Origin: Antrodiella citrinella | Taxonomy: Eukaryota > Basidiomycota > Agaricomycetes > Polyporales > Steccherinaceae | Assembly (NCBI GenBank): GCA_004802725.1 | Contig: SGPM01000090.1 | Location: 22,990-86,989, forward strand | Length of the DNA stretch: 64,000 bases | Direction: 5' to 3' | In this document: positions 10,761 to 17,432 of the stretch, piece after piece | Layout of the letters: each line of letters opens with the position of its first letter | Position numbering within the stretch: position 1 is the first letter of the stretch | Position numbers and translations under genes: made by a program | Notes under the pieces: generated by a model | Database searches by the model: none | Seen by the model: only the letters and a program-made list of their open reading frames with translations | What the model was told of the DNA's origin: nothing

Positions 10761-13336
10761 ATGCAGGCTCAAATCTGCCCTTTGTTATGTACACGAATAC
10801 CCTCGGTGTCCGGTCACAGAGTCGTTAGACGATCGGTCTCACTGACCTCGAAACTCACAAATTCCTCCATAACAGGACCCACTACACCTGCACTGTCTGA
10901 CCTTACGCTTGGGTCATACTTCAGGTCGCAAGTCCTCGCTAATCACTCGTCACGACCTGCGCTCATATGCCGCGCTGAGCGTGCTGGGGCTCATGGGGGA
11001 CCATCCTCACGGATGCGGAATTTGGCGAAGGAGGATGGGAGAGAGAGAGCTTATCTGGCTTGGGATTATGAAGAGTTCGATCGTAACATCATGGCACTGA
11101 CGAGAGGACTCATTGGATTGGGGGTAAAGAAAGGGGATCGTGTGGGTGTCGTCATGGGAAATAACAGGTGCGTCGTGAATCTCATTGTGTATTGTCCGAC
11201 TTTTGAACAAGTTGAAAAGTGTGTACGCTATGTTGCAGTGGGCGTGCGCGAACATCGGTGCGGTCCTGGTCACATTGAATCCTGCATACAGAATAAATGA
11301 ATTTGTACGCAGTGCTCAGTCCTCTCCTTGAATTCTGATTTACCTCGTGACAGATATCTACTCTGTCTCTCGTCGGAGTCTCTCACCTATTCGTCGTGCC
11401 TAGTATTCGCTCGTCGCATTACGTCCAAATGCTCTCGTCTGCCTTTCCTGCGCTCTGCTCGGCCACGCCTGGCGAGATACAAGAGGAACGTCTTCCGGAT
11501 CTGAAACACTTGGTTGTATTTGATGACTCCGCAGCAAGTGTCTCCGGCAGTGCAGGTAGCAGTAAAATCACTGGGGTGGAAGATTGGCGAGAGACAAGAG
11601 CTACGATTGATTTCAGGGAAGTTCTACTTTGGGACGAGAATGGACGAGAAGCAAAAACAGTTCAAAGTATGGGAGATTCGTTGCAGAAGGACGACGTCAT
11701 AAATCTACAGTTCACCAGGTGAGTCTCCTCTCATGAGCTAAGATGCATTCTCATGAGAAATTAGTGGTACCACAGGTGCCCCTAAAGCTGTTTCTGTTCG
11801 TTAAGTTTACTGCAGCTTTCAGACTAGGCCCTGACATCGTATTAGTTGACGCACAGTAATCTTCTGAATAATGGTATCCTGGTCGGCAATGCGATGCGCA
11901 TTACACCTCAGGATGTACTCTGTAACGTGCCACCACTGTTTCATTGCTTTGATAAGTCTTGTGCAACTCTTTCCCATTTCCACTCTTAAACTAATTTGAA
12001 CCGTAAACACGCCTTGTCCTAGGAAATTTGGCGTTATGGACCCATGGTTCATGTATCGTATATCCGTCACCCGTTTTCTCTCCTTCAGCCATTGTGTCTA
12101 CGCTGGTGGAAGAGAAGTGCACAGCTCTGCACGGCGTTCCCACTCACTTCTTAGGCGTGCTCAGCGAGGTGGAGGAAAGGAGGAAAAGTGGTCAAGGCTT
12201 AGATCTCAGCCGATTGAGGTAAGTGCTTGAGCTGTCTTCATTTTGATCTATTTGAGTTGACGGTTGTGACTATGCTGTAGGACTGGTATCGCTGCGGGAA
12301 CGTCAATGCCTATAGACCTCATGAAACAGCTCATGGCGAAGATGAACCTGACTGATCTGACTGTTGCATATGGTATGAGTAAGTGCTCTCATTCACTCGC
12401 CACCATAGTCGAAGCTCATGTAGGCCCGCACCCACAGCTGAAACTAGGTGATTTCTACTCTAGCACTTCACTTTTACCTTCCAGTCCTGACATCGCCCAC
12501 CCAGCCCGGTCTCGTTCCAAACGACGCCTGTGGACTCAGTCGTGCATCGCGTTGAGACAGTTGGCAAAGTTCATCCGCACGTGCGAGCCAAGATAGTTGA
12601 TAACGACGGTAATATTGTACCGGTACACACGCCAGGAGAGCTGCTCGTAGCTGGCTACTTGGTCCAGGAGGGATACTGGAATGATGCAGAACAAACTGCG
12701 AGCGTGATGAAGACAGACGAAGACGGGACACTTTGGATGTATACAGGAGACGAGGGTGTCATGGACGAAGATGGATACTTACGAAGTGGGTCCGTGTCCT
12801 ATTCTTGTTGATGCATTACTCAACTTTCCCATTCGCAGTCGTCGGTCGTATCAAGGACATCATTCTTCGTGGCGGCGAGGTAAGCCTCCTCCTCCGTTGC
12901 TCATATTTCGCTGAACCTTCCTTCAAAGAACCTCTTCCCAGTCCAAATCGAGAACGTCCTCACCGACCACCCGTCCATCCGCGAAGCCGCAACTGTAGCC
13001 GTTCCTGACGCTAAATACGGTGAAGTGGTCGGAGCGTGGATTGTCCTGGAGCCCAACAGTCAGATGTCAAGAGAAGACGTACGACAGGTCGTTTGGGAGG
13101 GTATGAATCCACAAGTACGCGTGTTTGACCACACTTTACCACCTACTCATTTTCGTACTCACGATGTGTAGAATGCACCGGCATGGGTATGGTTTGTAGG
13201 TGAGCCTGGTGTTGCGGACGAGCTGCCCAAGACTGCAAGCGGGAAAGTGATGAAGCACATACTGCGGAAATGGAGTCGAGATCTAGCCGTGGAAGGAGTC
13301 GGGAGAGTCGCAATCAGCAATGGACGAAAGCAATGA
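10761..13336 (+). CDS. acyl-CoA synthetase, AMP-binding (ACSF2-like, 660 aa)
   Basis: This enzyme would activate a medium or long fatty acid with ATP and CoA. The Arg-rich, acid-free start suggests import into mitochondria or another organelle. The 12 exons are 10761-11167, 11220-11304, 11354-11718, 11765-11795, 11846-11951, 12011-12218, 12281-12378, 12438-12447, 12505-12785, 12839-12879, 12929-13114 and 13172-13336, total 1,983 nt. Adenylate-forming motifs fall in order: SGTTGAPKAVS (P-loop, alone on a 31-nt exon), FHCFGLVLGNLALWTHG, YGMTETSP (TETS on a 10-nt exon), YTGDEGVMDEDGYL, GRIKDIILRGGENLFPVQIE and the catalytic lysine region PKTASGKVMKH. Intron 5 (11952-12010) begins ATAAGT and ends AC; no GT-AG choice there keeps the frame. 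Substrate chain length cannot be read from the sequence. Confidence 0.9.
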
Positions 13337-14907: not shown

Positions 14908-16448
14908 TTACAAAGTCGTCAGCTTCTTCCCCTCGTTGACGTGCGCTTGCAACATCCGCACCAAGCTTTCTGTGAGAATGCTGGGATCCGGAAGTTTTGT
15001 CCGGGTGTTTGAACTCGGAGCATGGGGTCGAAAGTAGGCGAACCAAAGGGAAAATGTATGGAGTTTCGGGAATGGAAAGGGCGCAGCACGGGATTTGGCT
15101 TGAGTGGCTGGGGTTTGTGGATCGGTGACGACTTGGCTCAGAGCATGGGCCTCAAAGATGCTGTCCAATATGGTGGGAAGGCGGTCGAGGATTAGGACTT
15201 CGAGGTTCTGAAACTTTGAAGTGACCAAGGAAGGGCAGGCTGAGAGTCGTGGAAACCCCATTTGGATTTCAGCGAGACTACACGTATCTCTGCCAGGCAG
15301 TCCTCCGAAGCAAGGGCGAAAATTCGTTCCGACAAGCTACCTGCCAGCACCTTGGAGGTATCGACCACTACGTGACTGAACGTCCCGCGTGCCTTATTCG
15401 CAGCAATGATTTTACCGATGGAGCCGCCGTTCGTTTCTACAAACAATTCGCGGAGTACAGATGCGGGCCCTATTAGACCATGCCCTGAGAGCTTCCGGAA
15501 AACAGCCGCAAGCAGCTCAAACGGATCCTTGATAATCTGGGCGCCTCCAAGCTCGGTGATTCCAACCGGTGCTGCCTCGAATGGTGTACCATGGCCTGCC
15601 TTGTTGTACACCATCGAGCCGGGGAACTCTAGGTGGTTCAGCATGACAGCAGCCTGTAGAGCGTCCTCCTGAATAGAGAGTTCCCGAAGAGAGGGCAAGT
15701 TGACGACAGGCAGAATGGTGTGAAGGGGAAGAGGTGAAGTGAAAGTCGACTCGATTTTCAGTTCCTCCAAGACGGACATGTCTTCCAATGCTCGAAGGAA
15801 CGCGTCCAGAGACGAACCAGACCCTCTGTCAGGACAAACTTCCAAGCGGAGGATCTTCAATGTTGGTCGAAAAAAGGGTGAGCAACTAGGGTAAGTGATG
15901 CGACTCAGGATCAAAGCTTCCAAACGCTTCAATGGAAACCGAGGCGATACCAGTGGTACGTCTCCTAAATAAGTCTGGAAACCGCCAGTGACCGTGAGTC
16001 GCTTCAGGATGGGTGCGTCGAGTGTCCCTGGATTGAGCATACCGCGAGCAGCTGTATAGTCCAAGGTCTCTACGCGATGCAATTGTGCTTCAGCGATGGC
16101 AGCGTCGGTATACCCGTCGCATGAGGCGATGAGACGAAACGCTGTCTCGCCTGAGCGCCGAATTGCAAGGATGGTCTTGGAACGAGGGGTGTCCGAGTTT
16201 AGCGAGATGTTTCGCCATAGAAGGGCTGTTTCAATGACAAACTTTTTCCAAGACCGACATACTGAGGAGAACCTCGCAAGGCGTTTCCACTGATCCAGCG
16301 GTTCCAATTCCTCGATAGCTAATATGAAAATCTGAACCAGGAGTTCGGAAGGAAACGATGTGGAGGGAGAGGGACGCGACAGGTCTGTGACTTGGATAGA
16401 CGGATCCATCTTGTGCTGCTCGAAGCTATCTTCTAGTGATAGCAGCAT
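14908..16448 (-). CDS. F-box protein with divergent leucine-rich-like C-terminus (about 498 aa)
   Basis: F-box proteins recruit substrates to SCF ubiquitin ligases through Skp1. Here the F-box is PSELLVQIFILAIEELEP through FSSVCRSWKKFVIETALLW, near residues 30-85. It is followed by repeats with L/I-rich spacing such as LKRLEALILSRITYPS and FRPTLKILRLEVCPD. Exon 1 runs 16448 down to 15284 and exon 2 runs 15239 down to 14908. The 44-nt intron GTGTAG...TCTCAG restores the frame ACPSLVTSKFQNLEVLIL; without it the protein ends early at 15192. An alternative start is the ATG at 16409, and an upstream exon cannot be excluded. The substrate is unknown. Such genes are highly expanded in mushroom genomes. 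Confidence 0.7.
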
Positions 16449-17432
16449 AAGCTCGTCAACTTGTAGGAACTCAGGCGGGCCCACGTACCAGTTACGAATG
16501 AGACGTATGCCAAATGGGTTCAGCTGAGATTCTAGGGCTCAGTTAGGCTCACAAGGCAGGACAGACTTCTAGCGCTCGAATATTCTTGTAGTCGGAATTT
16601 ATGTAAGCTCTTGTAATGAAAAGGTTTGTTCTATGACATGCATATGATGTTCGACTGACCTCCATCTTAGCAAGCAAGGATTGACTAGTAGCTGAGGATC
16701 TCGTGCTGGCAGTAAGTAACACACAACAGCGTCCTCAACTACACCACGCTTTGTTTCGATCGATCCGCTGAATAGAGCAAATGCCGGCATTCAAACGCTC
16801 AATTTTCACGTCTGTAAGTTTGTTCTCAAAATTGATTTCACCGTAAAAGAGGGCAGCGTTACGCTCCTACTTGCCGTTACTACTAAGTACGGAGCTCGTT
16901 CCTTGGCACCGAAAAAGCTCTCAGGATCTTCTCGATGCGGCTGTGTCTGTGACGCCTTTGTGTCTTTCTCTGCTGAGGGCGCGTTTGGTGGAGCAGAAGA
17001 CGCGATATCAGAGCAGTGCCCATTCAGATATCGTTCTCAGATCTCAATAGTAGTACTATCTACTGAGACCACTGATCACGGGGATCGCAGACGGTCCTAC
17101 CGATTGCACAATGCCGTGATAGAAACGAGCACTCTCCTTCCCAGACGACGTTGCTCCCCTGAAACGACCGGCGGCACATTCGGCCGGGGGCACTGAAAAC
17201 AATCGCCGGTGTGCACGCGGTTTCGGCCTCTGACGTCAGTCCGAGATCTGATTATCGGCACATATGGGTGCTTCTTCTGCCTTCCTCCGGCCGGCCATTG
17301 ACACCCACTCTTCCATCCAAAAGTCATATATAAGACACCAAAGATGCTCGTTCACGCGATGTTCAACCTTTTTCCCTCTCCCCCACCACCAATTTCTCCT
17401 CACCGCTACTCTCGTACCCGTTATCGCCCGCC
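16449..17432. other. divergent promoter region between the F-box gene and the dehydrogenase
   Basis: About 1 kb separates the two divergent starts. It contains a TATA box at 17325 for the dehydrogenase and no gene that I can support. Confidence 0.5.
17325..17334 (+). promoter_or_regulatory. TATA box of the dehydrogenase gene
   Basis: CATATATAAG lies about 100 bp before the ATG at 17433. A pyrimidine-rich tract (CCTCTCCCCCACCACC-like, about 17,380) follows before the start, as is common in fungal promoters. Confidence 0.55.

What the first reader, a model, noticed from the sequence alone, without database searches (positions are those of the whole stretch)
11952..12010. Probable AT-AC intron in the acyl-CoA synthetase gene
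Intron 5 begins ATAAGT and ends AAACAC. Using exactly these borders joins FHCF to GLVLGNLALWTHG, a conserved stretch of this enzyme class, and keeps the whole 660-aa frame. I tried nearby GT donors with the only nearby acceptor (TCCTAG, 12022); they give a shifted frame or a stop. The intron is 59 nt, the normal length here, and has a branch-like ACTAAT about 20 nt before the end. The donor is U2-like apart from A at position 1, and the last base is C. First A with last C is the known tolerated exchange for first G with last G. AT-AC introns are rare, especially in fungi.
Basis: partly seen in the sequence, partly recalled or inferred. Interest (0 to 1): 0.75.

Follow-up and report, generated by a model that had tools for sequence, protein, structure and literature searches.

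The report
Ancient AT-AC intron in mushroom gene
A fungal gene carries an intron with the rare AT...AC ends instead of the usual GT...AG, and protein records from many mushroom groups betray the same odd intron, which gene-finding programs often get wrong.

Summary
The gene at 10761-13336 (+) is an intact 660-aa acyl-CoA synthetase with 11 introns: ten GT-AG, and intron 5 (11952-12010, 59 nt) ATAAGT...AAACAC. Of 4916 open donor/acceptor pairs tried, only 11952/12010 restores the conserved FHCFGLVLGN; none of the 22 GT/GC-AG pairs and no micro-exon solution does.

It is not a local oddity. Annotated fungal orthologues break here far more often than at any other junction of this gene: 61 of 139 models, against 1-14 of 139. 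Broken models that read into the intron betray its bases: Asp after FHC[FIM] in 17 of 18 (exon G + AY), Arg before LVLGN in 23 of 24 (last base C); GT-AG would give Gly, never seen in those 18 and 24. Signatures occur in at least seven Agaricomycete orders.

Implied donors fit AT-R-N-G-T (15 of 17 fully), not U12 ATATCC, and a survey reports no convincing minor introns in Basidiomycota. Best reading: a U2-dependent AT-AC intron, old within Agaricomycetes, probably trapped because changing one end alone blocks splicing. Splicing is inferred; no RNA of this species and no fungal DNA beyond this genome could be read.

The parts
10761..13336 (+). acyl-CoA synthetase gene, 12 exons, 11 introns, 660 aa
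   Evidence: script-built model; Pfam PF00501 and PF13193; 79% identical to a Cristinia sonorae protein over 95% of the query
11846..11951 (+). exon 5, ends ...CCA CTG TTT CAT TGC TTT G (PLFHCF + first base of Gly)
11952..12010 (+). intron 5, ATAAGT...AAACAC, 59 nt, phase 1
   Evidence: only open pair of 4916 that gives FHCFGLVLGN; Asp/Arg read-through signatures in relatives
11952..11957 (+). 5' splice site ATAAGT (GTAAGT with A for the first G)
11990..11995 (+). branch-site-like ACTAAT; candidate branch A at 11994
   Evidence: by eye; not tested
12005..12010 (+). 3' splice site AAACAC (CAG-like with C for the last G)
12011..12218 (+). exon 6, starts GC CTT GTC CTA GGA AAT (rest of Gly, then LVLGN)
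12020..12022 (+). competing TAG; with the AT donor would give an in-frame 71-nt AT-AG intron lacking LVLG

Best explanation
Intron 5 is a genuine AT-AC intron removed by the major (U2-dependent) spliceosome. Its donor is a normal GTRNGT site with A for the first G and its acceptor a YAG site with C for the last G. The A-C pair stands in for the usual contact between the first and last G in splicing (known from yeast genetics; cited in PMC6726248, not tested here). The intron was already AT-AC early in Agaricomycete history and has stayed so, most likely because a change at either end alone blocks splicing, so it cannot return to GT-AG one base at a time. Shown: the sequence, the uniqueness of the junction among enumerated pairs, the A and C implied in relatives. 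Inferred: splicing in this species, U2 dependence, single origin, the trap.
For: Only pair of 4916 open ones giving FHCFGLVLGN. Junction 5 broken in 61 of 139 annotated models, the other ten junctions in 1-14 of 139. Read-through residue after FHC[FIM] is D in 17 of 18; residue before L[VI][LI]GN is R in 23 of 24; nine models read one base off all show TTG-AT(G/H), none TTG-GTN; 41 of 62 broken models carry at least one signature. Implied donor allows purine at +3 in 17 of 17, G at +5 in 15 of 17, T at +6 in 17 of 17; the residue before R is codable by N-pyrimidine-A in 23 of 23 against a background of 0.502, so the end is YAC. The closest informative relative, Steccherinum ochraceum (P0002), reads FHCF-DKS, as the window's unspliced DNA does. 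The 25 transcript-type proteins and P0059 all read FHCFGLVLGN. Signatures in seven orders. No convincing minor introns in Basidiomycota according to PMC10639083 (passages).
Against: No RNA from this species; bases in relatives are deduced from protein models, not read from DNA. Asp allows AC as well as AT at +1/+2 (AT is fixed only by the nine frame-shifted models). 77 of 139 models are intact and do not tell whether they have an AT-AC, a GT-AG or no intron; 21 of 62 broken models carry no signature, among them the closest relative P0001. Exceptions: P0087 (P after FHCI) and P0162 (F before LVLGN); P0113 and P0160 (D-D-S, D-N-S) do not allow G at +5, and P0122 and P0155 (ALII) do not show a GTRNGT-like start directly. 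The 25 transcript-type proteins are favoured by the length filter of the search, and clustering at 90% could hide an isoform lacking LVLG. U2 dependence rests on the splice sites and literature: my snRNA search also missed U1.
Confidence: 0.86

Rival explanations
1. The AT donor is joined to the downstream TAG (12022): an AT-AG intron of 71 nt giving FHCF-GNLALW without LVLG, as the main or an alternative form.
For: Open and in frame; it is the first AG downstream of the branch-like site.
Against: LVLG is kept in the 25 transcript-type proteins and P0059 and in the 77 intact annotated models. In 23 of 24 broken models that show it, the base before the downstream exon is read as C, and the pattern NYA-C fits a selected YAC end. 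AT with AG is expected to stall the second step (yeast genetics, recalled).
Confidence: 0.05
2. It is a U12-type AT-AC intron removed by a minor spliceosome.
For: AT-AC termini are typical of part of U12-type introns; CTCTTAAAC at 11983-11991 faintly resembles the U12 branch motif CCTTAAC quoted in PMC3033335.
Against: Donor ATAAGT here and D-[KETMDN]-[SYC] in 17 of 17 D models; ATATCC would read D-I, seen in 0 of 17. No U11, U12, U4atac or U6atac match while U6 and U2 were found, but U1 was missed too, so this absence is weak. PMC10639083 finds no convincing minor introns in Basidiomycota.
Confidence: 0.03
3. AT-AC arose several times at this position by paired changes in separate lineages, rather than once.
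For: Only models, not DNA, were seen for relatives; intact models could hide GT-AG introns between the signature-bearing lineages.
Against: Same position and phase in at least seven orders, each origin needing a double change; the closest two relatives are both broken at this point.
Confidence: 0.05
4. Base-call error, assembly error or pseudogene in this genome.
For: Nothing specific; no reads were available.
Against: Two errors at exactly the two compensating bases would be needed; the rest of the 660-aa frame is intact; the signature recurs in relatives from independent assemblies.
Confidence: 0.01

Closest known systems
U2-dependent AT-AC introns of animal sodium channel genes (SCN4A intron 21; described in PMC2831892, passages; Wu and Krainer 1997 seen only as a citation)
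   Same: AT-AC ends with a donor otherwise like GTRNGT, G at +5, proposed removal by the major spliceosome and proposed trapping.
   Different: Here in a fungal acyl-CoA synthetase gene, 59 nt long, in a group reported to lack minor introns; splicing not shown experimentally.
AT-AC introns of Caenorhabditis elegans (PMC3033335, passages: at least 42 suspected real, probably U2-processed)
   Same: AT-AC introns in a lineage that seems to lack U11, U12 and U4atac.
   Different: No claim there, in the passages seen, of one intron conserved across orders.
AT-AC protointron in yeast SUT635 and alternative AT-AC use in RPL30 (PMC6726248, passages)
   Same: AT-AC splicing by a fungal major spliceosome, junction sequenced.
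   Different: Non-coding, or a minor alternative to GT-AG; protointrons are described as poorly conserved, and no standard yeast intron normally uses AT-AC.
U12-type AT-AC introns
   Same: Terminal dinucleotides.
   Different: Donor ATAAGT, not ATATCC; no exact CCTTAAC branch site.

Membership tests
U2-dependent AT-AC introns | AT first, AC last dinucleotide with the protein restored | tested here: met
   11952/12010 is the only enumerated pair giving FHCFGLVLGN
U2-dependent AT-AC introns | U2-like donor positions +3 to +6 (RNGT) | tested here: met
   AAGT in the window; allowed at +3, +5 and +6 together in 15 of 17 D models
U2-dependent AT-AC introns | Spliced in cells with these borders | not testable with these tools
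   No RNA of this species; transcript-type proteins of relatives read FHCFGLVLGN, 25 of 25 plus P0059, but their genomic borders are unknown
U2-dependent AT-AC introns | Needs U1/U2/U4/U6, not U11/U12 | not testable with these tools
   Biochemistry needed; literature reports no convincing minor introns in Basidiomycota (PMC10639083)
U12-type introns | Donor close to ATATCC(TT) | tested here: not met
   ATAAGT in the window; Asp-Ile reading in 0 of 17 D models
U12-type introns | Branch motif CCTTAAC near the 3' end | tested here: not met
   By eye: no exact match in the 59 nt; CTCTTAAAC at 11983-11991 is only faintly alike
U12-type introns | Minor snRNAs in the genome | tested here: inconclusive
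   U11, U12, U4atac, U6atac: no match; U6 and U2 found but U1 missed
GT-AG introns | GT and AG borders compatible with the protein | tested here: not met
   0 of 22 open GT/GC-AG pairs keep FHCFGLVLGN; no micro-exon solution

The most novel reading that the evidence does not exclude
The intron is a fossil of the minor spliceosome: a U12-type AT-AC intron in an ancestor that still had U12 splicing, whose donor changed to AT-R-N-G-T so that the major spliceosome could take it over, and which has been trapped as a U2-dependent AT-AC intron ever since. This is the route proposed in PMC2831892 for the animal sodium channel introns, here frozen across a class of fungi that lost the machinery. Nothing here tests the origin; it is not excluded.
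Probability: 0.2. Interest if true: 0.78.

Novelty: new member of a known kind. Interest (0 to 1): 0.62.

Why it matters
U2-dependent AT-AC introns are rare, and how they arise and persist is open. One that is betrayed in at least seven orders of mushrooms, in a group reported to have no minor introns, gives a natural data set for the trap idea: 41 signature-bearing models, about 38 species by hand count, in which to look for reversions, one-step intermediates and losses. It also exposes a systematic annotation error: 61 of 139 public models of this enzyme break at this junction. The misread-protein signature (Asp at the donor, Arg at the acceptor) could find other AT-AC introns without RNA data.

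Tried and rejected
GT-AG, GC-AG and micro-exon explanations: rejected by enumeration. Apparent frameshift after YGM in exon 7: resolved as a 10-nt micro-exon (12438-12447), so the gene is not broken. Paralogue comparison inside the genome: of 16 matches, those outside this gene are at most 39% identical; only the C210 match (37%, query 261-349) crosses the junction position, and it was not followed up. Search with a 44-residue region around FHCF-DKS of P0002: returned only P0002 itself, one of three protein searches spent for nothing. Same-species proof by pairing transcript-type proteins with broken annotated models: the listed nearest matches hold no pair at 95% identity or more in which the annotated model is broken. 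Rfam searches for minor snRNAs: negative but uninformative, since U1 was missed as well. Species identity: Antrodiella citrinella was considered, but the paper gives 33 Mbp in 1228 contigs (PMC12878558, passages) against 30.0 Mb in 602 here, so it is left open. Literature: searches for AT-AC with U2-type and fungi, with major spliceosome and basidiomycete, with non-canonical splice sites and basidiomycete, with U2-dependent and related terms, with Schizophyllum commune, with acyl-CoA synthetase and for 'U2-type AT-AC' listed no paper whose title or abstract start describes this intron. Only listings and passages were seen; supplements were not read, and the library lacks most subscription journals, so prior notice cannot be excluded.

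Full report
The sequence. The window lies in a 30.0 Mb, 602-contig genome. The closest proteins to its enzyme are from Cristinia sonorae (79% identity) and Steccherinum ochraceum (75%), which the taxonomy places in Agaricales and Polyporales; so it is an agaricomycete, species unnamed. The gene at 10761-13336 (+) was worked out by eye from translations and checked by script: 12 exons, 11 introns of 46-62 nt, 660 aa without a stop, with the two Pfam domains of AMP-forming acyl-CoA synthetases. Ten introns are GT-AG. Intron 5 (11952-12010) starts ATAAGT and ends AAACAC. An apparent frameshift after YGM proved to be a 10-nt micro-exon (12438-12447) that restores YGMTETSPVSFQTT.

Uniqueness of the borders. 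I enumerated pairs with first intron base 11860-12099, last base up to 12119 and length at least 26 nt. 4916 pairs keep the frame open, 22 of them GT-AG or GC-AG. Exactly one of the 4916, AT-AC 11952/12010, gives FHCFGLVLGN; none of the 22 does, and no micro-exon solution with GT/GC-AG borders does. Retention shifts the frame and meets stops. AT-AG 11952/12022 is open but drops LVLG.

Relatives. Two protein searches listed 164 different homologues; each listing is the best 120 of about 8000 hits. The first ranked by the whole protein, which works against broken models; the second was scored only downstream of the junction (residues 328-620 of P0118), so breaks were not penalised. I split the 164 into 139 annotated models and 25 proteins known only from lgn or jgi sources. 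That the 25 are mostly spliced transcripts is inferred from unbroken reading frames on contigs of 1.2-5.9 kb; the search's length filter favours such unbroken proteins. Around each of the 11 junctions I counted models with a gap or insertion within six residues. Junction 5 is broken in 61 of 139 annotated models; junctions 1-4 in 5, 5, 5 and 9, junctions 6-11 in 4, 14, 14, 5, 1 and 4 of 139. Among the 25, junction 5 is broken in 0 (others: 4, 2 and 1 at junctions 1, 2 and 6, otherwise 0). The 25, and P0059, which has both kinds of source, read FHCFGLVLGN.

What the broken models say. By a motif test 62 of 139 annotated models are not intact and 77 are. Where a model reads past FHC[FIM], the next residue is D in 17 of 18; the exception, P0087, reads FHCIPSIR. 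Exon G followed by a GT donor would give Gly; G followed by AT or AC gives Asp. Where a model enters LVLGN from upstream, the residue before it is R in 23 of 24; the exception, P0162, has F. A final G would give Gly, a final A mostly Ser or sometimes Arg, a final C gives Arg (CGN). Six models show both signatures (P0055, P0056, P0083, P0102, P0113, P0160). Nine models read the stretch one base off; all nine show L followed by M or I, that is TTG-ATG or TTG-ATH, and none shows V, as TTG-GTN would. In all, 41 of 62 broken models carry at least one signature and 21 carry none. Of the two closest relatives, P0002 reads FHCF-DKS, as the window's unspliced DNA does, and P0001 merely lacks FGLVLG.

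Finer features. In the 17 D models the codons allow a purine at +3 in 17, G at +5 in 15 and T at +6 in 17: GTRNGT with A for the first G. P0113 (DDS) and P0160 (DNS) do not allow G at +5. The residues before R are T 7, S 5, I 4, L 4, P 2, A 1: 23 of 23 can be coded by N-pyrimidine-A, against a background fraction of 0.502 in the same proteins, so the acceptor is YAC. A full read-through in one Schizophyllum commune model (P0126, TALMS...SSRLVLGN) implies an intron of 58 nt (counted by hand).

Breadth. Signature-bearing species include Steccherinum (Polyporales), Heliocybe (Gloeophyllales), Plicaturopsis (Amylocorticiales), Phellopilus (Hymenochaetales), Amylostereum (Russulales), Coniophora (Boletales) and Cyathus (Agaricales); these seven orders were checked in the taxonomy. 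Counts are models, not species: S. commune gives 3 of the 23 R models and 1 of the 17 D models. Within S. commune two models are intact (P0022, P0079) and four carry signatures (P0126, P0129, P0132, P0134); Agrocybe pediades has one intact model (P0066) and one broken (P0111). So an intact model does not show a canonical intron.

Mechanism. Donor and acceptor look like those of ordinary introns except for the first and last base, and a survey of over 3000 genomes found no convincing minor introns in Basidiomycota (PMC10639083, passages). My snRNA searches found U6 (5 copies) and U2 (3 copies) and no U6atac, U12, U11 or U4atac, but also no U1, which a spliceosome must have, so they cannot show absence. 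U2 dependence therefore rests on the splice sites and the literature. PMC6726248 (passages) states that mutation of a yeast intron shows AT-AC to be the most efficient combination after GT-AG. PMC2831892 (passages) proposes that U2-type AT-AC introns come from a rare conversion of U12-type AT-AC introns and are then trapped. The present intron fits a trapped state; which route created it cannot be decided here.

Limits. No RNA of this species and no genomic DNA of other fungi could be read. Bases in relatives are deduced from protein models. The listings held Agaricomycetes among the named models as far as I looked, so nothing is known here about the junction outside that class. PMC7072748 reports low AT-AC rates in fungal annotations (passages), which may be lowered by the very annotation failure seen here (inference).

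Noticed in passing
12438-12447: A 10-nt micro-exon (CTGAAACTAG) encodes the core of the YGMTETSP motif; public models break at its two junctions in 14 of 139 each, the second most common break point in this gene.
   Followed up: partly
11983-11991: CTCTTAAAC in intron 5 faintly resembles the U12 branch motif CCTTAAC and overlaps the ordinary branch-like ACTAAT; a chance likeness or a relic, not tested.
   Followed up: no
L019-L023 (G000 contigs C90, C76, C94, C173): Five U6 snRNA genes over the Rfam cut-off with the usual ACAGAG box in the two copies read.
   Followed up: partly
whole genome G000: The Rfam U1 model finds nothing although U2 and U6 are found, so U1 is probably too divergent for the model or missing from the assembly.
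   Followed up: no
15192-16538 (-): A 448-aa open frame has an F-box-like stretch near its start (SFPSELLVQIFILA, by eye).
   Followed up: no
P0151 (Mycena pura model), junction 3: This model reads FTRQV through junction 3, which would fit a GC donor (AG|GCAAGT) there (by eye).
   Followed up: no
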